This document shows positions 13,204 to 22,775 of a DNA stretch of 46,752 nt, piece by piece; positions within the stretch are counted from its first letter, which is position 1; every line of letters begins with the position of its first letter. The DNA is from Clostridia bacterium (GTDB lineage: Bacteria > Bacillota > Clostridia > Oscillospirales > Acutalibacteraceae). The position numbers and the translations under genes are program-made. The DNA lies in assembly GCA_017531385.1 (NCBI GenBank), contig JAFXLD010000070.1, forward strand, positions 1 to 46,752, given 5' to 3'. The notes under the pieces were generated by a model. It worked only from the letters and a program-made list of their open reading frames with translations. It searched no databases and was not told the DNA's origin.

Positions 13204-13216
13204 TTTAGCGGAGCTG

Positions 13217-13366
13217 AATTATTGTTTCAATTCTCAATGCTCAATTCGCAATTATCGGAAGCCCTACGGGCTGAATTTTACAAATGGGTCAAAGGGCGAA
13301 GCCCTTTCCACAATTGCGAATTACGAATTGCGAATTTTTATCGGCAACGCCGATAAATTATTGTTT
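13217..13366. repeat. MITE-like intergenic repeat flanked by 11-bp direct repeats
   Basis: The stretch is bounded by two copies of AATTATTGTTT (13217-13227 and 13356-13366). Inside are CAATTCGCAATT, its near-inverse AATTGCGAATTACGAATTGCG, and three hairpins: GCCCTACGGGC, AAAGGGC/GCCCTTT and TTATCGGCAACGCCGATAA. It encodes no plausible protein. This is the shape of a small non-autonomous mobile repeat; the direct repeats may be a target duplication. Confidence 0.6.
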
Positions 13367-13386
13367 GTCGGTTCATAAAATAAAAA

Positions 13387-13561
13387 AGGATACTGTCTCC
13401 GGACAGCACCCAACATATTTATAATAACACAGATTATATGCAATTGTCAATAGTTTTTGATGTCAATGTATACAAAATCTCTGTATTATACAAATAAAAA
13501 TAGTGAACTTTGTACAAAATTCCGTCTTGAAAACCGGAAAATAGTGTGCTATTATATAGAC
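13387..13561. promoter_or_regulatory. RNA element copy 1: conserved bidirectional promoter region
   Basis: It is nearly identical to 19030-19205. From left to right it holds a CTGTC/GACAG hairpin with an A/T-rich outer flank, a minus-strand promoter (TTGACA at 13450-13445, 18-bp spacer, TATTAT at 13426-13421), three repeats TATACAAA (13469), TATACAAA (13487) and TGTACAAA (13511), and a plus-strand promoter TTGAAA (13527-13532), 17 bp, TATTAT (13550-13555). Repeat spacings of 18 and 24 bp are the same in the second copy, suggesting protein-binding sites. On the minus strand the hairpin, followed by T residues, would end a transcript of only about 30-40 nt. Confidence 0.65.
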
Positions 13562-13578
13562 ACAGAGAGGTGATACCA

Positions 13579-13590
13579 ATGTACAGGTAA
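13579..13590 (+). CDS. Three-codon ORF (Met-Tyr-Arg) at the 5' end of RNA element copy 1
   Basis: ATG TAC AGG TAA is preceded by GAGAGGTGATACCA, an SD with extended complementarity to the 16S rRNA 3' end (GAGGTGAT). It is identical in both copies. It may be a minimal translated leader rather than a functional peptide. Confidence 0.35.
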   Translation: MYR

Positions 13591-13846
13591 AAACCTGAAG
13601 GCTCAACGCAAAAGGCAAAAATAAAAAAGAAAAAAAGTAAAAACCAAAAAAAGAACAAATGAACAATCAAAAAGCCAATGCAACGAGCCCCTGAAAAGAT
13701 GCCTATGATAAAGGAAAAAATTTCAAAGCAAAAGGAATCTCGCTTACGAGAAAATGAGTAAAGTAATCGAAGAAAAAAGCGTTTAAGAAATGGAATCCGA
13801 AAAAAGAAAGGCATCAGAAAATCTGTAGAAAGAGTAGGTACACAAA

Positions 13847-13879
13847 ATGATGCTCGATACAAAGATTGAACAGAAATAA
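13847..13879 (+). CDS. Conserved 10-residue micro-ORF MMLDTKIEQK
   Basis: The ATG has GAGTAGG about 11 nt upstream, and the stop codon lies in the 5' arm of the terminator. The paralogue at 19414-19446 reads MKLDFKSEQK. Leu, Asp, Lys, Glu-Gln-Lys and the stop are kept, and codons for Leu, Asp, both Lys and others differ only at the third base, which hints at selection on the peptide. No signal sequence is present. Confidence 0.35.
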   Translation: MMLDTKIEQK

Positions 13880-13925
13880 CCCTCGACTGAAGTTCCGGGA
13901 TGGACAGTCGAGGGTTATTTCTGTT
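13869..13925. terminator. Long-stem bidirectional terminator of RNA element copy 1
   Basis: Perfect 21-bp arms, 13869-13889 and 13905-13925, contain AACCCTCGACTG and its complement. A T-rich tail follows on the plus strand, and the arm reaches the stop codon of the convergent membrane-protein gene. The inner bases differ from the second copy but remain paired. Confidence 0.9.
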
Positions 13926-15284
13926 TTATTTTATTTTATTTATTCTGACGTGCAGTGCAGACCAGACAAGTGTAACGGATACAGAAATTATACACATAAT
14001 TGTCTGAAGAGAAAACAGATCTCTGAAATTCTGTTTGTCAGGTATTCCCACAAACATATATACTATGAAAATGTAAATTGTAAATGCTGTGAAAAGTACA
14101 CCGTAAAGACTTCTTCTGCTGATGTTCTGTGCGTTCAATCCCCATTTTACATTCATAAGCACAACAACTGCAATTGCAACAAGAACGGCAATAACGGTTG
14201 CAATTATCTGATAATCGGAATCGTCAAATCGTTCGAGAACGGGACGGACAATGCTGACACCGATCATAAACACAAAACCCAGGATGAAAGTCAGAACGGT
14301 CTGTGCTTTTTCGGGAACAAAACTGAAAGTCGGTTCTATGACATTTTCCGTTTTTCTGAGTTTCAGTATGTATGCTGTGATGATTGCACCTGCGATAAAG
14401 CCCGTGAAATATTCCCAGCAACCCCAGGGATAAATGAAAGAGGAGAAAGGTGACGGATTTTCCATGTGGTATCCGCCGTTGCCGAAATAGAAAAACAGGT
14501 CTGCTACGGTAATTGCAAATGCGAATGCAACCGATACAACAGTGCCGACTTTTGCGCTGATTTTGTCTTTTACGATAAATCTCACTGCAATAAGTGAACA
14601 GGCTGCTCTGATTGCAGATGATATTGTCTGTATTGAAGAGAAATAATTTCTTCCGCCGTCAAACTTTTTAGCCCATGAAATGTTATTGAAATGCTGCATA
14701 TAAACGGAATACGCATCTCCTTCAACATTTGCAGCTGCAAGCCCTTTTTCAAACAGATCTGCAGCCTGTGGCTGAATAAGTTCAAGAATCCAATGGGAAA
14801 CAGTAGCATTGGCGATTGTGCCTGAAATGAAGAACACCGCAAGAACGATGATGAAATCTTTTACTTTCCATTGATTTTCGCTGAAACCTCTGCCGAGCAT
14901 GATTCCGAATAATGTTGCAACACCGAAACCTAAGCAGAGCATAATAATTATAGCCGAAGTAACTGAAATATAAACAGGCACCGAACCGGGGACAGAAGCA
15001 TCTGCCTTTTGAAGAACACCTGTTATCTGCGACAGAAGTGTACCCCATGCAGGAACGGTAAGCATAAAAGACAGCGCTGTCAGTGAAAGCCAGCCGATGT
15101 CCATTTTTTTGCGTTCACCTTTTACAGCAATAATGAACATCGTGAACACAAAACCTGCGTTGAGAAGTCCCCATGAAGACCCCCAGCCTGTTTCACCTCG
15201 TACTCTCCATAAAAAGCCCATGAGCAAAGCACCAACAAGAACGGCAAAAGCATTCTGCAATGTATTTTTCTTCGTATTTTCCAT
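13926..15284 (-). CDS. Polytopic membrane protein of unknown function
   Basis: A 452-residue protein with about ten to twelve hydrophobic segments spread over its whole length, so it is an integral cytoplasmic-membrane protein. Distinct stretches include FLWRVRGETGWGSSWGLLNAG after the first membrane segment, KKFDGGRNYFSSIQTISSAI in a central loop and YPWGCWEYFTGFIAGAI. The conserved-looking Arg, Glu and Trp in the early loop suggest a transporter or acyl/glycosyl transferase core, but I recognise no family. Its 3' end abuts the terminator of RNA element copy 1 with no spare bases. A spaced GAGG (about 7 nt before the ATG) supports the start. Confidence 0.75.
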   Translation of the reverse strand: MENTKKNTLQNAFAVLVGALLMGFLWRVRGETGWGSSWGLLNAGFVFTMFIIAVKGERKKMDIGWLSLTALSFMLTVPAWGTLLSQITGVLQKADASVPGSVPVYISVTSAIIIMLCLGFGVATLFGIMLGRGFSENQWKVKDFIIVLAVFFISGTIANATVSHWILELIQPQAADLFEKGLAAANVEGDAYSVYMQHFNNISWAKKFDGGRNYFSSIQTISSAIRAACSLIAVRFIVKDKISAKVGTVVSVAFAFAITVADLFFYFGNGGYHMENPSPFSSFIYPWGCWEYFTGFIAGAIITAYILKLRKTENVIEPTFSFVPEKAQTVLTFILGFVFMIGVSIVRPVLERFDDSDYQIIATVIAVLVAIAVVVLMNVKWGLNAQNISRRSLYGVLFTAFTIYIFIVYMFVGIPDKQNFRDLFSLQTIMCIISVSVTLVWSALHVRINKIK

Positions 15285-15431: not shown

Positions 15432-15493
15432 AAATGGCGTATTCAATAACCAAAGACAGTAAGGTTTTTTGATTTTTTTGAAGGAGAATGAAA

Positions 15494-16081
15494 TTGAATA
15501 GTCAGGAGAAGAAACAGGAAAAAGGCTCTGCTGATGTTGGAAATGTGAACATCAACAGGGTTCTTGAAGAATGTGAAAAGTACCGTAGTCAACTTGTGAA
15601 GTATTGTTTGAAATTTTTTGACTGTGATTACGAGTGTGCAGAAGACTGCGTACAGAATGCCTATGTGGCATTACTTGAGAATCTTAAAAACGGAGTGGTA
15701 ATAAAAAATTACAAAGCATGGCTTTATACCGTGGTTCTCAATTACAAAAATAAAGCCATAAAAGAGATGCAGACGAGAAATGAATATGACTTTGCAGACA
15801 ACGAAGAAAAGGATGCTGTTTTAAACAACTCCGTCATTTATGAGCCTGATTTCTCTGAAAGTATCGTTTCAGATGAAATGATAGAGGAACAGGCGATAAA
15901 AATAATAGCTTCATTAAAACCCGAGGAGCAGAGACTGTATATTGAGTATTATTCGCAGAATAAAAAACTCAAAGACATTGCAGAAAGTCTCGGAGTTTCG
16001 TTTGATGCAGTGCGGAAAAGACACACTGCACTTAAGAAAAAGCTTCGCAAAAAAATCGATGATGTAAAAAACAACGGTTAA
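15494..16081 (+). CDS. ECF-type RNA polymerase sigma factor
   Basis: A 195-residue sigma-70-family protein of the extracytoplasmic-function type. Region 2 spans about residues 30-95 (LVKYCLKFFDCDYECAEDCV and KAWLYTVVLNYKNKAI). Region 4 spans about 140-190 (SLKPEEQRLYIEYYSQNKKL then DIAESLGVSFDAVRKRHTAL), a helix-turn-helix. A roughly 35-residue acidic linker joins them. TTG at 15494 is preferred because AAGGAG ends 7 nt before it; the in-frame ATG at 15488 is only 1 nt from that SD. It is cotranscribed with a single-pass membrane protein 14 bp downstream, as expected for a sigma/anti-sigma pair. The secreted protein gene at 17156 may be a target (inference). Confidence 0.88.
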   Translation: MNSQEKKQEKGSADVGNVNINRVLEECEKYRSQLVKYCLKFFDCDYECAEDCVQNAYVALLENLKNGVVIKNYKAWLYTVVLNYKNKAIKEMQTRNEYDFADNEEKDAVLNNSVIYEPDFSESIVSDEMIEEQAIKIIASLKPEEQRLYIEYYSQNKKLKDIAESLGVSFDAVRKRHTALKKKLRKKIDDVKNNG

Positions 16082-16918: not shown

Positions 16919-17155
16919 TCACATTTTTGAAATTTCCGACACTATAGTTATAAGGTTTTTTCTAAAAAACTGTTGTTTAGTTTTTAGAAGAAGTTTTAAG
17001 ATAAAATAATCAATAAGCGGTGATACCAATGGCATTGTGAGCACGGCGGACTTATAAAAGATATGTTTTCTGAACTTCGTCATACCGTTTTATCTGTCCG
17101 CTTGAAATTATTTCAGATAAAGAAGTTCTACTATATTTTATAAGGAGTGTTTAAT
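16919..17155 (+). promoter_or_regulatory. Structured 5' leader of the surface-protein gene
   Basis: This 237-bp gap has no protein gene. It contains a CTAAAAAACT/AGTTTTTAG hairpin (about 16962-16989), then GGTGATACCAATG (17019-17031). That 13-mer is shared with both RNA elements and again starts a three-codon ORF (Met-Ala-Leu-stop, 17029-17040). Downstream, GCGGAC (17046-17051) pairs with GTCCGC (17096-17101), while AAGCGG (17015-17020) can compete for CCGCTT (17099-17104). GAACTTC (17072-17078) can pair with GAAGTTC (17122-17128) near the SD. These mutually exclusive pairings suggest a regulatory leader; I recognise no riboswitch class. Confidence 0.4.
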
Positions 17156-18946
17156 TTGAATAAAACAAAAAAAATAATATCGGCATTTTTAGCCGTGCTT
17201 ATGATAATGTCATTTACATCTCTGTTTGCTTCGGCAGAGGGTGTTGTGTTAACAGCAGACAATGTTGTTGAATGGCCCACTGTAGAATATAAAAATACTG
17301 ATGGTTTGTATTATTATGAACAACCAATTGATGACGGACTTGTATTAAATGGTGGTGTTGTGACTTCTGATGGAACGGCAGAAGGAACGGTTATTGCAGG
17401 TAAATTCGTATTCAATTATGAAGAGGATGATTTCCCGTCATCTGGAACACGAAAGGCTAATATTAAATTTATTCCTGAAGATTTAATCACTTACTCAGGC
17501 TTTGAAGTTGACAGTTCAGCAAATGTTACTTTTGTTGTTACAAAGACTACTCCCGTTTTTGAAGATGAAATAAATAACCCTCTTATTGCAACAGAAGTAG
17601 AGGCTGGAGCAACTCTTGCAAATTCAACTCTTTCCGGAGGAAAAGTAGTTAATCCTTACAATGCTAACGCTCCTAAACTGGCAACAAAGTCATGGTCATG
17701 GTCAGACAAAAAAACTGTTGTTACTGAAAGCGGATATTATGAGGCAAAACTTACTTGTCCTTCATATAACACAATTTATGCACAGGTATATGTAAGAGTA
17801 GCCGGTGATGACGTAGTTGTTGAAATTGAAGAAATGCCTACTATTGCCGATGTTAAGTATAAAGAAGGTTTAACAGCTGGTGACCTTACAATCAGCGGCG
17901 GCAAGGCTTCAGTTGCTGGTGAATTTAAGGTGAAAGATGCTTCTCAGCCACTGATCGGCGGAAAAAACACAGTCGCTGTTGTTTTTGTTCCCGAAGATAC
18001 TACCTTGGATGAAGTTGAATTTTCAATAACTGTTACTGTTGAAAAGCTTGCAACTTATTTTATTGATGAAAACGGAAATAAAATTACTCCTGAAATAAAA
18101 ATACCTTATAATTCTACACTTGATTCCAGTACTTTAGCTTCATATGTTGAAAAACTTACAGCTAATTGTGGAAAGTTTTCTGTTAGTCGTATTACTCCAA
18201 ATACAATTGATACATCTAAAATAGCTGAATATGAATATAAATCATCGATTGCTCCTGAAAATAGTAATTATATTTCGAGTGAAGTAGTTTTTAAGCTTAT
18301 CATTGAACCAAAAGAAATCACACCTACAATTTCCGCATACGGAAACGACACCTATATGATCACAACAGGTGACTACAAAATAAGCCCTAGAGGTACATAT
18401 GATTTATATGTAAACGGTGAGCTTGTAATGGAAGATATCAAGTATCAGGAAGAATTTACATGGCGTCCCGAAAAGAGTGGTACATATAACCTTAAGGCAG
18501 TTTACAATCCTGTTGAAAACGATACTTATAAGGTTAATGATGCTGTAAGAGAAAACATGGAACTGAATCTTACATGGAAAATTAACTGCATTAACTGCGG
18601 TGCTTACGACTATAAATACGGCGAAACAGCAAAGGTTAATCACAGTCTTGGTAACCAGTTCGCTGGCTGGGTATTCTACGATGAAAACGGAAATGAATTT
18701 ACACCCGAAAATGTGGTTGCAGATGAATCCACATCAAGTGTAAAATTCACAATGCCCGACTTTTCACTTACAGTAAAGGCAAAAATCGTCGGTGAAGCTG
18801 ATGACAGCGTTGACAGCGATGATAACAGCGGCAGTGCCGGTTCAACTTCAATCTTCAGCAGATTTATAGAATTCCTTCGTAATTTGTTTGAAAAGTATAT
18901 CAACATTTTCAAAACAGTTTTCGGAATGTTTGCTCCCGCAAACTGA
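17156..18946 (+). CDS. Secreted surface protein with Ig-like and InlB-type repeats
   Basis: A 596-residue protein with a signal peptide (MNKTKKIISAFLAVLMIMSF, cleavage near SAEG). The body is made of beta-sandwich-like repeats, for example ADVKYKEGLTAGDLTISGGK followed by an AVVFVPEDTTLDEVEF unit; an equivalent VVTSDGTAEGTV...KFIPEDLITYSGFEV unit lies near the N-terminus. A C-terminal block (CGAYDYKYGETAKVNHSLGN...FAGWVFYDENGNEFTPEN) resembles divergent InlB/Listeria-Bacteroides repeats. After an acidic Ser/Asp linker the last 30 residues form an aromatic amphipathic helix (FSRFIEFLRNLFEKYINIF) and there is no LPxTG, so attachment may be non-covalent. TTG at 17156 is chosen: AAGGAG lies 9 nt upstream. 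Confidence 0.8.
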   Translation: MNKTKKIISAFLAVLMIMSFTSLFASAEGVVLTADNVVEWPTVEYKNTDGLYYYEQPIDDGLVLNGGVVTSDGTAEGTVIAGKFVFNYEEDDFPSSGTRKANIKFIPEDLITYSGFEVDSSANVTFVVTKTTPVFEDEINNPLIATEVEAGATLANSTLSGGKVVNPYNANAPKLATKSWSWSDKKTVVTESGYYEAKLTCPSYNTIYAQVYVRVAGDDVVVEIEEMPTIADVKYKEGLTAGDLTISGGKASVAGEFKVKDASQPLIGGKNTVAVVFVPEDTTLDEVEFSITVTVEKLATYFIDENGNKITPEIKIPYNSTLDSSTLASYVEKLTANCGKFSVSRITPNTIDTSKIAEYEYKSSIAPENSNYISSEVVFKLIIEPKEITPTISAYGNDTYMITTGDYKISPRGTYDLYVNGELVMEDIKYQEEFTWRPEKSGTYNLKAVYNPVENDTYKVNDAVRENMELNLTWKINCINCGAYDYKYGETAKVNHSLGNQFAGWVFYDENGNEFTPENVVADESTSSVKFTMPDFSLTVKAKIVGEADDSVDSDDNSGSAGSTSIFSRFIEFLRNLFEKYINIFKTVFGMFAPAN

Positions 18947-19022: not shown

Positions 19023-19029
19023 AAAATAA

Positions 19030-19205
19030 AAAAATGCTGTCCTCAGACAGCACCCAACATATTTATAATAACATAAATTATATGCAGTTGTCAATAGTTT
19101 TTGGAGTCAATATATACAAAATCTGCGAGTTATACAAATAAAAATAGTTAAATTTGTACAAATTTCCGTCTTGAAAAAGCGAAAAAGATATGCTATTATA
19201 TAGAC
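19030..19205. promoter_or_regulatory. RNA element copy 2: conserved bidirectional promoter region
   Basis: Paralogue of 13387-13561 with very high identity. It has a GCTGTC (19036-19041) / GACAGC (19046-19051) hairpin, a minus-strand promoter TTGACA (19094-19089), 18 bp, TATTAT (19070-19065), repeats TATACAAA at 19113 and 19131 and TGTACAAA at 19155, and a plus-strand promoter TTGAAA (19171-19176), 17 bp, TATTAT (19194-19199). The hairpin stem gains a base pair relative to copy 1. A minus-strand transcript would end in GCTGTC...GACAGC followed by seven T residues. Confidence 0.65.
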
Positions 19206-19222
19206 ACAGAGAGGTGATACCA

Positions 19223-19234
19223 ATGTACAGGTAA
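19223..19234 (+). CDS. Three-codon ORF (Met-Tyr-Arg) at the 5' end of RNA element copy 2
   Basis: ATG TAC AGG TAA has the same upstream 14 bases as copy 1, including the extended SD. The stop codon forms the loop of a short AGG/CCT hairpin. Confidence 0.35.
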   Translation: MYR

Positions 19235-19413
19235 CCTAAGGCTCAAATAAAAAATAAAGAGCCAAAAAGATACTTTTCAAAAAGAACAAAGGACAGAACA
19301 AAAAGTGCTTCTCACTCTACGGGAATTATATAGATGGAAAAAATGCAAGTTTCACCACCTGAGTTCGAGTAAGAAAGAGTATCAGAAAATATTAAGAAAG
19401 AGAGGACAAAAAA

Positions 19414-19446
19414 ATGAAACTTGACTTCAAAAGTGAACAGAAGTAA
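19414..19446 (+). CDS. Conserved 10-residue micro-ORF MKLDFKSEQK
   Basis: An AGAGAGG SD lies about 9 nt before the ATG, and the stop lies in the terminator stem. It pairs with the ORF at 13847-13879; most codon differences are synonymous. Confidence 0.35.
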   Translation: MKLDFKSEQK

Positions 19447-19490
19447 CCCTCAACCGGGGATCAGATGACAAACGGTTGAGGGTTATTTCT
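19439..19490. terminator. Long-stem bidirectional terminator of RNA element copy 2
   Basis: The arms are 19439-19456 and 19473-19490 (AACCCTCAACCG and complement), 18 bp with one G-U. Compared with copy 1, the inner pairs change from CGACTG/CAGTCG to CAACCG/CGGTTG, a compensatory change. It ends at the stop of the convergent antiporter gene. Confidence 0.9.
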
Positions 19491-20786
19491 TTATGCCGGA
19501 TTCTGTTTTGAAGCAATATGTTCATCACGGGCACTTTTTCTGCCTTCAGCCTGAATGTCACCGGCTTTAGTCAGTGCAATCTTTGTAAGGAACGGGCCTA
19601 CAATTTCGTAAATAAGCACTGCAAAAAGAGTGATGTTTCTGACTATAGCACCGTCGGGACCGAGTTCAATTGCTTTGATTGCCATACCCAGCGCAACACC
19701 TGCCTGAGGAAGAAGTGTGATACCGAGATATTTTGTTATATTCTTGTCGCATTTTGTCATTTTTGCGCTGATGAAAGCACCGGAGCATTTACCGATTGAA
19801 CGGGAAATTATGTAAACGATACCTGCAATAACAACGGCAATGTCTGCAAAAACGGAAAGCTCAAGCTCAGCACCGCTTATAACGAAGAAGAGAATGAGAA
19901 TGGGTGCTGTCCATCTGTCTGCTCTGTCCATAAGTTCTTCTGAAACATCACAGAAGTTGCAGAATACAGTACCGAGCATCATACATGCAAGCAGGGAAGA
20001 GAATCCCACATGAAAATGTCCCACATCGAATTTAAGGCATGAAATCGCAACGGTCATCATTACGAATGTGACTGAAACAGCCATACGCTTTGAACGGGAA
20101 TGGAAGAATTTTTCGCAGAATGTGAAAAGACCGCCCATAACAAGACCGAGAAGAATTGAAAGCACAACTTCAAGAACAGGTTCAACAATTACCGACAGAA
20201 CATCAATTGTACCTGTGCTCAGTGACTTTGCAACACCGAATGAAACAGCAAAAACCATAAGACCAACTGCGTCGTCAAGGGCTACAACAGGCAACAGGAT
20301 GTCTGTAACGGGACCCTTTGCCTTGTACTGTTTAACAACCATAAGTGTTGCTGCAGGAGCCGTTGCCGTTGCAACTGCACCGAGAACGATTGCAGCGGGA
20401 AGTGTGAGTTTGTCTGGCATTGCAAGATGAAGAAGTATCAGCACCGTATCAACGATTATTGTTGTGAATAAAGCCTGAAAAACGCCGATAATGGTTGCCT
20501 GTCTGCCGATTTTTTTCAGCTGTGCAAGACGGAATTCATTACCCATTGAAAAAGCAATGAAGCCGAGTGCAACATCGGAAATTATTCCGAAACCTTCAAT
20601 CTGCTCTGTGGTGATTCCTATTCCGGGTATGTTGAATGCACCCAACACAAAAGGACCGATAAGAACACCTGCGATAAGGTAGGCAGTAACAGCGGGAAGC
20701 TTGACGAGCTTTACAAGTCTTGATAACAGAAGTCCTGCCAGCAGAGCTATGGAAAGGCTCAGCAATATACTTGCGGTATGATTCAT
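19491..20786 (-). CDS. CPA2-type cation:proton antiporter
   Basis: A 431-residue integral membrane protein with about 12 hydrophobic segments, matching the Na+/H+ exchanger (Kef/NapA-like) fold. Marks are the first-helix region LVKLPAVTAYLIAGVLIGPF, GFIAFSMGNEF, the gate region ATAPAATLMVVKQYKAKGPV, and the ion-binding VVALDDAVGLMVF with the two adjacent aspartates typical of electrogenic CPA2 members. A late RSIGKCSGAFISAKM segment and the LLPQAGVALGMAIK segment are also typical. There is no C-terminal TrkA/RCK domain, so it is probably a plain Na+(K+)/H+ exchanger. GAGGT precedes the ATG by about 10 nt. The gene is tail-to-tail with RNA element copy 2. Confidence 0.9.
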   Translation of the reverse strand: MNHTASILLSLSIALLAGLLLSRLVKLVKLPAVTAYLIAGVLIGPFVLGAFNIPGIGITTEQIEGFGIISDVALGFIAFSMGNEFRLAQLKKIGRQATIIGVFQALFTTIIVDTVLILLHLAMPDKLTLPAAIVLGAVATATAPAATLMVVKQYKAKGPVTDILLPVVALDDAVGLMVFAVSFGVAKSLSTGTIDVLSVIVEPVLEVVLSILLGLVMGGLFTFCEKFFHSRSKRMAVSVTFVMMTVAISCLKFDVGHFHVGFSSLLACMMLGTVFCNFCDVSEELMDRADRWTAPILILFFVISGAELELSVFADIAVVIAGIVYIISRSIGKCSGAFISAKMTKCDKNITKYLGITLLPQAGVALGMAIKAIELGPDGAIVRNITLFAVLIYEIVGPFLTKIALTKAGDIQAEGRKSARDEHIASKQNPA

Positions 20787-21097: not shown

Positions 21098-21405
21098 CAA
21101 CAACTGAATAATGTTGTACAGATAAATGCGTAGAGCAGAAACCAGTAGGTCGGAAAGAACCTGGAGAGAGTTGCCGGTTGGTGCGAGGCAAAGGGGGCAT
21201 CCTTCACGAATTCATTCTGTTAGCAGTGCACTGAATAAGAGAAATCTTTAGTAGGATGCAACGGGGGTTCCCGTTACAGAACTAAGGTATGATTGTACCT
21301 GACAAGGCTGTCACCGTGAGATGGCAGCGAACTGAGGTGGTACCACGGGATTATCGATTTTCTCGTCCTCTGTATTCTTTTCGGAATGCGGAGGGCGTTT
21401 TTGTT
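21098..21405 (+). promoter_or_regulatory. T-box riboswitch leader, probably tRNA-Phe responsive
   Basis: The T-box core AACTGAGGTGGTACCACGG is at 21330-21348. It is followed by a terminator stem (CGTCCTC at 21364-21370, GAGGGCG at 21391-21397) and a T run. Stem I features are AGTA near 21149, a GGAGAGAG bulge, the distal GGTGCGAGG loop, and CACGAATTCATT at 21206-21217. I read the specifier codon in that last segment as TTC (21211-21213), which is Phe. Uncharged tRNA would pair with the T-box and allow read-through into the ligase/ACT operon. The T-box call is secure; the specifier register is an inference from the GAA-NNN-A context. Confidence 0.93.
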
Positions 21406-21467
21406 TGCTTTTTCACACTCCGAAGGTCTTGTTCTAACCAGAAGCAAAAACAGAAAGGATGGTAAAA

Positions 21468-22775
21468 ATGGCACAGAACTATTATCAGAAAGAAATCGAA
21501 ACCATGCCGATTGAAGAAATGAAAAAACTTCAGTCAGAAAAACTCGTAAAACAGGTGAAGCACGTTTATGAAAACGTACCTTACTACAAGGGGCTCATGG
21601 ATGAAAAAGGTGTAAAGCCCGAAGACATCCGCGGAATTGAAGATCTGCATAAACTTCCTTTCCTTACAAAAGCAGATCTGCGTGATGCTTATCCTTACGG
21701 TCTTCTTGCAAAACCGCTTGATGACTGTGTACGTATTCAGTCCACATCAGGTACAACAGGTCGCCGTGTAGTAGCTTTCTACACACAGAATGACATTGAT
21801 TTATGGGAAGACTGCTGTGCCCGTGCAATCACAGCCACAGGAGCTACAAAGAAGGACGTATGTCAGGTAGCTTACGGTTACGGACTTTTCACAGGCGGTC
21901 CCGGTCTTAACGGCGGTTCACACAAGGTCGGTTGTCTTACACTTCCGATGTCTTCAGGTAACACAGAGCGTCAGATTCAGTTCATGATGGATCTGAATGC
22001 AAGTTTAATCTGTTGTACTCCCTCTTATGCCGCATATATCGGTGAAACATTAAAAGAACAGGGATATAAGCCCGAGGACATTCCTCTAAAAGCAGGTATC
22101 TTCGGAGCAGAGCCCTGGACAGAGGAAATGCGAAAAGGTATTGAAGAAGTTCTCGGCATTAAGGCTTACGATATTTACGGTCTTACCGAAACAACCGGTC
22201 CCGGTGTTGCTTTCGAATGCAGTGAACAGACAGGTATGCATGTTAACGAAGACCATTTCTACGCTGAAATTATTGATCCCGATACAGGTGAAGTTCTTCC
22301 CGAGGGAAGTAAGGGTGAGCTTGTGTTCACATCTCTCGACAAGGAAGCATTCCCTCTTCTCCGTTACCGTACACGTGATATATGTGTTCTTTCCCGAAAA
22401 AAATGTTCATGCGGCAGAACTCTCATTAAAATGGCTAAGCCTATGGGCAGAACAGACGATATGCTTATTATCCGCGGTGTGAATGTATTCCCGAGCCAGA
22501 TTGAAACCGTATTACTTAACGAAGGTTATCAGCCGAACTATCAGATTGTAGTTGACCGTGTCAAAAACACTGATACATTCGAAGTCAATGTTGAAATGAC
22601 CCCGGAACAATTCACCGATAAGGTCGGAGAAATTCTTGCTATGGAAAAATCTCTTGCAAATGCAATGAAGGCAATGCTTGGTATCAACCCTGCTGTTCAC
22701 CTTGTTGCACCTAAATCCATTGCACGAAGTGAAGGTAAGGCAGTCAGAGTCATTGACAAGAGAAAACTTATATAA
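21468..22775 (+). CDS. paaK: Phenylacetate-CoA ligase
   Basis: A 435-residue adenylate-forming enzyme that activates phenylacetate (or a related aryl acid) with ATP to an aryl-CoA. The AMP/ATP loop QSTSGTTGRR is at 91-100. Further marks are YGYGLFTGGPGLNGGSH, GAEPWTEEMR, IYGLTETTGPGVAFEC, LLRYRTRDICVL and the C-terminal MGRTDDMLIIRGVNVFPSQ. ATG at 21468 is chosen because AAAGGATGG lies 5-7 nt upstream; the ATG at 21459 is only 2 nt from that SD. The T-box leader, the probable Phe specifier and the following ACT protein tie it to aromatic amino acid metabolism; in related bacteria it often accompanies indolepyruvate:ferredoxin oxidoreductase, which is absent here. Confidence 0.93.
   Translation: MAQNYYQKEIETMPIEEMKKLQSEKLVKQVKHVYENVPYYKGLMDEKGVKPEDIRGIEDLHKLPFLTKADLRDAYPYGLLAKPLDDCVRIQSTSGTTGRRVVAFYTQNDIDLWEDCCARAITATGATKKDVCQVAYGYGLFTGGPGLNGGSHKVGCLTLPMSSGNTERQIQFMMDLNASLICCTPSYAAYIGETLKEQGYKPEDIPLKAGIFGAEPWTEEMRKGIEEVLGIKAYDIYGLTETTGPGVAFECSEQTGMHVNEDHFYAEIIDPDTGEVLPEGSKGELVFTSLDKEAFPLLRYRTRDICVLSRKKCSCGRTLIKMAKPMGRTDDMLIIRGVNVFPSQIETVLLNEGYQPNYQIVVDRVKNTDTFEVNVEMTPEQFTDKVGEILAMEKSLANAMKAMLGINPAVHLVAPKSIARSEGKAVRVIDKRKLI

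What the first reader, a model, noticed from the sequence alone, without database searches (positions are those of the whole stretch)
13387..13930. Two paralogous RNA elements with conserved promoters, micro-ORFs and covarying terminator
13387-13930 and 19030-19494 share about 200 nearly identical bases of promoter region, then a diverged A-rich middle, then a conserved micro-ORF and terminator. Structural parts keep their order while bases change: GGCTC/GAGCC stem, TCTCG/CGAGA versus TTCTC/GGGAA hairpin, and terminator CGACTG/CAGTCG versus CAACCG/CGGTTG. Neither has a downstream plus-strand gene, and both end tail-to-tail with a membrane-protein gene. This fits an undescribed family of structured transcripts of about 300-360 nt. 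It is not a leader of an adjacent gene.
Basis: partly seen in the sequence, partly recalled or inferred. Interest (0 to 1): 0.88.

Follow-up and report, generated by a model that had tools for sequence, protein, structure and literature searches.

The report
Clostridial RNA family with ribosome-loading mini-genes
Many uncultured gut Clostridia carry an undescribed, free-standing RNA gene that starts with a three-codon mini-gene behind an unusually strong ribosome-binding site and ends with a nine- or ten-codon gene and a terminator, which looks like a new kind of ribosome-engaging small RNA.

Summary
Copies at 13387-13930 and 19030-19494 belong to an RNA gene family found in many genomes of the window's order and sporadically elsewhere in the class. 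No Rfam family reaches threshold on it, and no neighbour gene is conserved.

Anatomy: (1) a 5' mini-ORF, usually exactly three codons ending UAA, behind an extended Shine-Dalgarno able to pair with most of the 16S 3' tail, tandemly repeated in some lineages; (2) a covarying middle, absent in one member; (3) a second strong Shine-Dalgarno and a 9-10-codon ORF, M(M)LDxKxxxK, under amino-acid constraint, whose stop lies in the base of a covarying terminator; (4) a divergent near-consensus promoter firing straight into a terminator.

Most likely this is a ribosome-engaged dual-function RNA: a ribosome cycling on the minigene caps and stabilises it, and ORF2 makes a micropeptide. Conservation, anatomy and selection are shown from sequence. 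Transcription, ribosome loading and output are inferred.

The parts
13382..13406 (-). copy 1: terminator of the divergent (minus) transcript, hairpin 13393-13406 plus A-run 13382-13387 (T-run on the minus strand)
   Evidence: in the family a terminator follows the minus promoter in 139 of 157 elements, shuffled mean 33.4
13421..13450 (-). copy 1: divergent promoter, -35 TTGACA (13450-13445), 18-nt spacer, -10 TATTAT (13426-13421)
   Evidence: 154 of 166 elements score >=9/12, 21 of 166 shuffled; elements were chosen with an HMM that covers this promoter
13476..13518 (.). copy 1: conserved operator-like block AATCTCTGTATTATACAAATA...TTTGTACAAA between the two promoters
   Evidence: conservation profile; in the genus 8 of 12 pattern hits lie in elements
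13527..13555 (+). copy 1: plus-strand promoter, -35 TTGAAA, 17-nt spacer, -10 TATTAT with TG before it
13560..13925 (+). copy 1: predicted RNA of about 365 nt (start inferred from the -10 box, end from the terminator)
   Evidence: inference
13565..13577 (+). copy 1: extended Shine-Dalgarno GAGAGGTGATACC
   Evidence: duplex with the 16S tail -17.0 kcal/mol for 22 nt ending at the A of the AUG; family statistics
13579..13590 (+). copy 1: three-codon minigene ATGTACAGGTAA (MYR stop)
   Evidence: three codons in 98 of 143 elements anchored without the CC motif
13600..13689 (+). copy 1: stem GGCTC 13600-13604 / GAGCC 13685-13689 around an A-rich loop
13698..13815 (+). copy 1: helix P1 GATGCCT 13698-13704 / AGGCATC 13809-13815 enclosing hairpin TCTCGCTTACGAGA 13738-13751
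13827..13839 (+). copy 1: Shine-Dalgarno of ORF2
13847..13879 (+). copy 1: ORF2, MMLDTKIEQK stop; the stop codon lies in the terminator base
13872..13922 (+). copy 1: terminator, bidirectional in form
   Evidence: 15 of 17 pairs with both-side changes in 37 sequences
19028..19051 (-). copy 2: terminator of the divergent transcript, hairpin 19036-19051 (A-run limit approximate)
19065..19094 (-). copy 2: divergent promoter, -35 TTGACA (19094-19089), 18-nt spacer, -10 TATTAT (19070-19065)
19120..19140 (.). copy 2: operator-like block AATCTGCGAGTTATACAAATA
19171..19199 (+). copy 2: plus-strand promoter, -35 TTGAAA and -10 TATTAT
19204..19490 (+). copy 2: predicted RNA of about 287 nt
   Evidence: inference
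19209..19234 (+). copy 2: extended Shine-Dalgarno 19209-19221 and minigene ATGTACAGGTAA 19223-19234 (MYR stop)
19240..19263 (+). copy 2: stem GGCTC 19240-19244 / GAGCC 19259-19263
19268..19383 (+). copy 2: helix P1 AGATACTTTT 19268-19277 / AGAGTATC 19376-19383 enclosing hairpin TTCTCACTCTACGGGAA 19309-19325
19395..19446 (+). copy 2: Shine-Dalgarno 19395-19406 and ORF2 19414-19446, MKLDFKSEQK stop
   Evidence: L011 orthologue
19445..19484 (+). copy 2: terminator stem AACCCTCAACCG / CGGTTGAGGGTT

Best explanation
Each element is an independent gene for an abundant, ribosome-engaged dual-function RNA. Shown by sequence: a strong promoter starts the RNA a few bases before an extended Shine-Dalgarno that can pair with most of the 16S rRNA 3' tail, followed at once by AUG, two codons and a stop, usually UAA. 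A mostly structured middle follows, then a second strong Shine-Dalgarno, a 9-10-codon ORF whose Leu and Asp are kept, and a covarying terminator. Inferred: ribosomes load on the minigene, make two peptide bonds, stop and re-initiate without leaving; they thus sit on the 5' end, protect it from 5'-to-3' decay and hold ribosomes on the transcript. Also inferred: ORF2 is translated, and its peptide together with the structured middle is the trans-acting output. The divergent promoter firing straight into a terminator is most simply an insulator against outside transcription, with a tiny RNA as a possible second product.
For: Minigene: in the 143 of 166 elements whose -10 box was recognised, and without use of the CC motif, 98 have exactly three codons, with UAA in 90 and AGG as third codon in 62 of those 98. 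Leader/16S-tail energy has median -16.0 against -9.7 kcal/mol for 723 genes of the same kind of loci; at least 5 of the 6 GGAUCA bases pair in 112 of 127 elements with a start against 20% of genes. This extension is special to the minigene: at least 4 of 6 bases pair in 128 of 131 minigene leaders but 16 of 165 ORF2 leaders. The tail was read in a same-genus genome. Tandem minigenes: one search lists 13 of 166 elements with two or more, of which I judge 11 genuine; they keep the start motif at two or three codons. L258 has three directly before ORF2 and no middle. ORF2: of 24 loci fetched by 5'-module matches only, 21 carry it, two of the others are cut by contig ends and one has a longer form. 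Leu is written with six codons and nothing else in 74 of 75 modules not chosen by pattern, although the filter allowed Ile and Val. Structure: terminator 15 of 17 pairs with both-side changes; P1 helix in 105 of 142 against 17% of cross-pairings; CUUA-type hairpin in 80 of 166 against 25 shuffled, strong in 41 against 4. Free-standing. Known precedents: STAB-SD protection of a 5' end by 30S (PMC4113751, passages); strong-SD minigenes re-initiate without dissociation, and a ribosome on a mini-ORF can protect mRNA (PMC8708949, passages).
Against: No transcript, ribosome-profiling or peptide data were available. 16 of 143 elements have no start codon there and 29 more have another ORF length; several have other small 5' hairpins instead of a minigene. 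The AGG-UAA could also be kept by pairing with the UACC before the AUG in some copies. A STAB-SD by itself needs no ORF. The start motif GGTGATACC[A/G]ATG is not special to the elements: in the genus 13 of 28 exact hits lie outside them, and 4 of the 7 that I looked at are start-like sites of other ORFs. Elements are patchy among genomes (48 of 395 in the family), so the function is not essential. 86 of 166 elements lack a recognisable CUUA-type hairpin. Asp GAT is nearly invariant at its third base (72 of 74), so RNA-level constraint on ORF2 is present too.
Confidence: 0.45

Rival explanations
1. It is simply the mRNA of a 9-10-residue peptide with a long regulatory 5' UTR. The minigene and structured middle control ORF2 translation, and the peptide (not the RNA) is the whole function.
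For: ORF2 shows amino-acid-level constraint and is present in nearly all uncut loci that were found by their 5' module. In L258 the minigenes run straight into ORF2 without a middle.
Against: Middle helices covary, the 3' bases of ORF2 double as terminator stem, and the terminator apical loop GTGTAAAGAAACA is kept in many copies, which points to RNA-level roles as well.
Confidence: 0.22
2. It is a trans-acting base-pairing or protein-binding sRNA; the ORFs only load ribosomes to stabilise it, and the peptides are irrelevant.
For: Free-standing, several copies in many carrier genomes, structured middle, no conserved neighbours.
Against: Leu and Asp of ORF2 are kept through synonymous change. 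The middle is missing in L258. No target search was run.
Confidence: 0.15
3. It is a decoy that titrates 30S subunits or depletes peptidyl-tRNA through minigene drop-off, so lowering translation when induced.
For: Extended pairing with the 16S tail, three-codon ORFs ending mostly in UAA, AGG third codons in 62 of 98, tandem copies. NGG codons early in an ORF cause drop-off (PMC12204400, passages).
Against: One to four copies per genome against thousands of ribosomes would need very high expression. Third codons other than NGG occur. PMC8708949 reports a two-codon minigene that was not toxic.
Confidence: 0.1
4. It is a CsrB-like sponge for a regulator that recognises the GGUGAUACC-AUG start motif of some mRNAs.
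For: Exact GGTGATACC[A/G]ATG hits outside elements exist in the genus (13 of 28; 1 hit for the pattern read backwards), and 4 of the 7 examined look like translation starts. The motif is tandemly repeated in some elements.
Against: Pairing with the 16S tail already explains the motif. 3 of the 7 examined hits lie inside coding frames. G005 has four hits but no element by R1. The tandem copies with AGGUACNGUCC keep the start but not GGUGAUACC.
Confidence: 0.05
5. Remnant of a mobile element or MITE.
For: Two to four copies in some genomes and tandem pairs.
Against: Two copies flank the same gene in G000 and G004. No plasmid match, 1 viral contig. Covarying stems and ORFs under selection are not expected of debris.
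Confidence: 0.03

Closest known systems
Dual-function small RNAs (RNAIII, SgrS, SR1, Spot 42; recalled, not compared by a call)
   Same: Free-standing regulatory-type transcript that carries a short ORF and ends in an intrinsic terminator.
   Different: ORFs here are 3 and 9-10 codons; the 5' one is tandemly repeated in some members; a divergent promoter-terminator is part of the gene; no Rfam family reaches its threshold on it.
STAB-SD 5' mRNA stabiliser of cry3A (PMC4113751, passages)
   Same: A strong Shine-Dalgarno close to the 5' end, able to interact with the 16S 3' end.
   Different: [quoted passage not shown] Here a three-codon ORF follows at once and is conserved, and pairing extends into GGAUCA.
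Regulatory minigenes in leaders (axe-txe mg2, LEE1 ler; PMC8708949, passages)
   Same: A very short ORF behind a Shine-Dalgarno, proposed to protect RNA or to help translation of a second ORF.
   Different: Those lie in front of protein genes. Here the only second ORF codes for 9-10 residues.
Rfam sRNAs ncr1241 and sRNA71 (weak matches on the minus strand of copy 1)
   Same: Weak similarity only (24.3 and 23.5 bits).
   Different: Far below their gathering scores of 60 and 50.

Membership tests
Any Rfam 15 family | Score at or above the family's gathering cut-off | tested here: not met
   window; only a T-box at 21122-21373; copy 1; best 33.4 bits against 56.8; 14 loci with relatives; only a tRNA in L260 reaches its cut-off
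Dual-function sRNA | Free-standing transcription unit with own promoter and terminator | tested here: met
   sequence level only:
Dual-function sRNA | A translated ORF | tested here: inconclusive
   selection on ORF2 residues supports it; no translation data
Dual-function sRNA | Base-pairing with target mRNAs | not tested
   no target search was run
STAB-SD element | Strong complementarity to the 16S 3' tail near the 5' end | tested here: met
   the 5' end itself is inferred from the promoter
STAB-SD element | Does not direct translation initiation | tested here: inconclusive
   a conserved three-codon ORF follows, which argues that it does; not measured
STAB-SD element | Protects the RNA from 5'-to-3' decay | not testable with these tools
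   needs half-life measurements
cis-acting leader, riboswitch or attenuator | A conserved downstream gene on the same strand | tested here: not met
   61 of 151 elements with a downstream ORF have it in sense, and no neighbour family occurs in more than 8 of 148 loci (ORFs of 80 aa or more, crude calls)
Type I toxin-antitoxin RNA | Hydrophobic toxin peptide and an overlapping antisense RNA | tested here: not met
   ORF2 is a 9-10-residue hydrophilic peptide; the minus transcript does not overlap the plus RNA and has no excess complementarity to it (z 0.28)
Mobile element or MITE | Fixed ends and mobility among sites | tested here: not met
   copies keep their place beside the same gene in G000 and G004; hairpin sequences at the 5' end vary freely; empty sites were not examined
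CsrB-like protein sponge | Repeated binding motif shared with target mRNAs | tested here: inconclusive
   one form of the start motif (AGG[G/T]TGATACC) occurs exactly only inside elements (7 hits), but GGTGATACC[A/G]ATG has 13 of 28 hits outside them, 4 of 7 examined being start-like

The most novel reading that the evidence does not exclude
A Clostridia-wide class of 'ribosome-parking' RNAs: one to five minigenes of about three codons with extended anti-16S-tail leaders hold cycling ribosomes on the transcript, as a controllable reservoir or brake on translation, and the divergent promoter makes a roughly 30-nt RNA that is a functional part of the switch.
Probability: 0.2. Interest if true: 0.93.

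Novelty: new variant of a known kind. Interest (0 to 1): 0.78.

Why it matters
It would add a widespread, uncatalogued RNA gene family in uncultured gut Clostridia. It may be the first RNA family built around conserved, sometimes repeated three-codon minigenes with near-complete pairing to the 16S 3' tail. It would make testable how a start-and-stop ORF behaves when it is the product of evolution rather than a laboratory construct, and whether a conserved 9-10-residue peptide can be a gene product in its own right. The conserved promoter that fires straight into a terminator is a second oddity that RNA-seq data from any carrier could check.

Tried and rejected
Rejected: known Rfam family; mobile element; leader of a neighbour gene; pairing between the minus and plus RNAs (z 0.28). 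Weakened but not excluded: a CsrB-like decoy. My first test used a form of the motif that the window's own copies do not have and seemed to exclude it; the wider pattern shows the motif outside elements too. I therefore added it as a rival at 0.05 and lowered the best explanation from 0.5 to 0.45. Operator shared with other genes: 8 of 12 genus hits lie in elements; the 4 others, each with one mismatch, were not examined. A first global alignment of the middle gave only the central hairpin; the outer helix appeared with anchored, cross-paired controls. A kissing contact between the P3 loop and the terminator loop was considered and not tested on its own.

Literature searches showed no description of this family in their listings; they cover open-licence PMC papers only, and no supplements were read. 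Passages were seen of PMC8708949, PMC8040213 (one passage), PMC4113751 and PMC12204400; other papers were seen in listings only.

Biases: loci L107-L221 were selected by a pattern that includes GATGTTAGATA, so they were left out of the codon counts. That count needed a Lys codon at its place and allowed Leu, Ile or Val and then Asp or Asn before it; four of 79 modules were dropped by score before it. R1 scores sequence as well as structure and favours ordinary ORF2s. Elements used for the promoter counts were chosen with a 5' HMM that covers the minus promoter; the terminator lies outside that HMM. Minigene leaders were picked with a GG...CC pattern; one search repeats the test without it. Background windows (112 of 1874) include elements themselves. 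The window genome's own 16S tail was not found by pattern; that of a same-genus genome was used. Elements with 3'-module scores under 41 were dropped (one search used 60). Searches of more than 40 genomes use stricter filters that lose weak matches.
Full report
Observation. The two stretches are real paralogues. Their first 212 nt are 87% identical. Only these two copies are found by BLAST in the window's genome.

Spread. With copy 1 as a DNA query, 7 of 11 genus genomes (own counted) match at E<=0.001, one of them only by short matches. So do 65 of 300 genomes drawn from the family, many only by matches of 25-60 nt. A covariance model (R1) of the 3' module was built from 37 copies. It finds 48 of 395 family genomes and 32 of 247 genomes drawn from the order, including nine other families. 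It finds 9 of 393 drawn from the class, own included, in six families outside the order. At phylum level it finds 2 of 299, own included; the other hit, L267, shows no element. In the genus, 7 of 11 genomes match R1 at E<=0.01, one marginal at 0.0084; the six clear ones have two or three copies each. The same pattern hits one viral contig.

Free-standing gene. Of 166 elements, 151 have an ORF found downstream: antisense in 90, sense in 61. Among 609 neighbour ORFs in 148 loci the most widespread clusters occur in 8, 7, 7, 6 and 6 loci, so there is no general partner gene. In G004 the two copies flank a homologue of the window's 13926-15284 gene (the cluster holds L001, L005 and L011), which argues for vertical inheritance of the pair.

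Divergent promoter. On the minus strand, 154 of 166 distinct elements carry a TTGACA/TATAAT-like promoter scoring at least 9 of 12; the same scan of shuffled sequences gives 21 of 166. The spacer is 17 or 18 in 155 of the 157 elements with any such promoter. The elements were picked with an HMM that covers this promoter, so the count describes the family rather than testing it. The terminator lies outside that HMM: it is found in 139 of 157, at a median of 26 nt after the approximate start, against a shuffled mean of 33.4; within 40 nt, 115 against 12.4. The predicted product is little more than the terminator hairpin, beginning near GUUGGGG. It shows no excess complementarity to the plus RNA. 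An insulator role is my inference. Between the two promoters lies a conserved block; in the genus 8 of 12 hits of a pattern for it lie in elements.

Minigene. Directly behind the plus promoter lies an extended Shine-Dalgarno with consensus AAAGAAAGGGTGATACC[A/G], then AUG, two codons and a stop. Using a GG...CC motif as anchor, 110 of the 134 elements that have it carry a three-codon ORF; 41 of 175 have no such motif. Using only the -10 box as anchor, 98 of 143 have three codons, with UAA in 90 and AGG as third codon in 62 of those 98; 16 of the 143 have no start codon there. The leader can pair with most of the 16S 3' tail. Median duplex energy is -16.0 kcal/mol against -9.7 for 723 genes in the pattern-fetched loci, of which 5.7% reach the minigene median. 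The amino acids vary (MYR, MNR, MYK, MKR, MFR and others), so length and stop are kept rather than a residue code. In some lineages the minigene is repeated: one search lists 13 of 166 elements with two or more. I read 11 as genuine, because the extra hits in L160 and L112 (and one of five in L102) lack the start motif; L039 and L172 include two-codon forms. L258 and L260, from outside the order, carry three and two. The motif GGTGATACC[A/G]ATG itself is not confined to elements: 13 of 28 exact genus hits lie elsewhere. Of seven of these examined, three lie inside coding frames and four are start-like, one with a two-codon ORF; window 17019-17031 is a further one.

Structured middle. The helix just before the ORF2 ribosome site reaches a score of 18 in 105 of 142 distinct elements, against 17.2% when left and right arms are taken from different elements (Mann-Whitney p about 3e-39). 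A map of 108 matched against cross-paired window pairs gives z 9.7 for the terminator, 5.0 for this helix, about 4 for 5' helices and 3.8 for the window pair that holds GGCTC/GAGCC-type stems; the lowest z is -2.2. A hairpin with a CUUA-type loop and exchanging stem sequences is found in 80 of 166 elements, 41 with a good score, against 25.3 and 4.0 after shuffling. L258 lacks the middle altogether, so it is not needed in every member.

ORF2 and terminator. ORF2 reads M(M)LDxKxxxK in most copies (193 of 201 modules fit a permissive start pattern; several of the eight failures are the antisense face of the palindromic terminator). In the modules not chosen by pattern, 74 of 75 fit. Leu is written with six codons and never replaced, Asp is GAT 72 and GAC 2, and Lys is AAG 62 and AAA 12 (Lys was required by the filter, Leu and Asp were not). 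The least biased test is the set of 24 loci fetched by their 5' module only: 21 carry ORF2, two are cut by contig ends (L012, L056), and L055 has a longer form. ORF2's own leader is also strong, median -13.9 kcal/mol, but does not use the extended part of the tail (16 of 165). Its last codons form the base of the terminator, in which 15 of 17 pairs show changes on both sides.

How it most likely works. Ribosomes bind the 5' site as soon as it emerges, translate three codons, stop, and re-initiate in place. PMC8708949 (passages) reports that a strong Shine-Dalgarno lets ribosomes re-initiate without dissociating after a minigene, that UAA favours drop-off, and that a ribosome on a mini-ORF can shield RNA. 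PMC4113751 (passages) reports that 30S bound to STAB-SD blocks RNase J1. By analogy the 5' minigene would cap and stabilise this RNA. The product is then the ORF2 peptide, the structured middle, or both; I favour both. A global effect on translation is possible but needs high expression. PMC12204400 (passages) reports drop-off at early NGG codons.

What is not shown. There is no evidence of transcription, ribosome occupancy, peptide or phenotype. The operator has no known regulator. The family is patchy even within its genus, so it is an accessory function.

Novelty. No Rfam family reaches threshold and the paper searches listed in Tried and rejected showed no description. I call it a new variant of a known kind: it would work like a dual-function RNA with a STAB-SD-like 5' end, but conserved three-codon minigenes, a 9-10-codon ORF running into the terminator and a divergent promoter-terminator set it apart.

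Noticed in passing
window 17017-17041: A further start-motif stretch, GCGGTGATACCAATGGCATTGTGA, gives a three-codon ORF (MAL stop) upstream of the gene at 17147-18946, without the other modules of the element.
   Followed up: partly
L284, L289, L292, L296: GGTGATACC[A/G]ATG at start-like sites outside elements in genus genomes; L289 (G005, which has no element by R1) has a two-codon ORF behind it.
   Followed up: partly
window 21122-21373: T-box leader (RF00230, 100.5 bits) upstream of an AMP-binding enzyme gene at 21459-22775.
   Followed up: no
window 13216-13345: Repeat-like stretch upstream of copy 1 with inverted TTGCGAATT-type and GGGCTTCGCCC-type segments; a somewhat similar stretch lies upstream of the element in L013 (by eye only).
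   Followed up: no
L253, L255, L256, L257, L260, L262, L090, L098, L102: Several members outside the window's family share a middle hairpin ACAC(G/A)GCGGUGU-like, most followed by an AUAUA-rich stretch, and some also UUCGCCUUUUGC, not seen in the window's copies (by eye).
   Followed up: no
A2 alignment, terminator loop: The apical loop GTGTAAAGAAACA of the terminator is kept in many copies from several families, more than a terminator needs.
   Followed up: no
window 15488-16081: A sigma-70-like factor gene (PF04542 and PF08281 matches) lies between the two copies; the distance between the two copies in G004 leaves no room for it.
   Followed up: no
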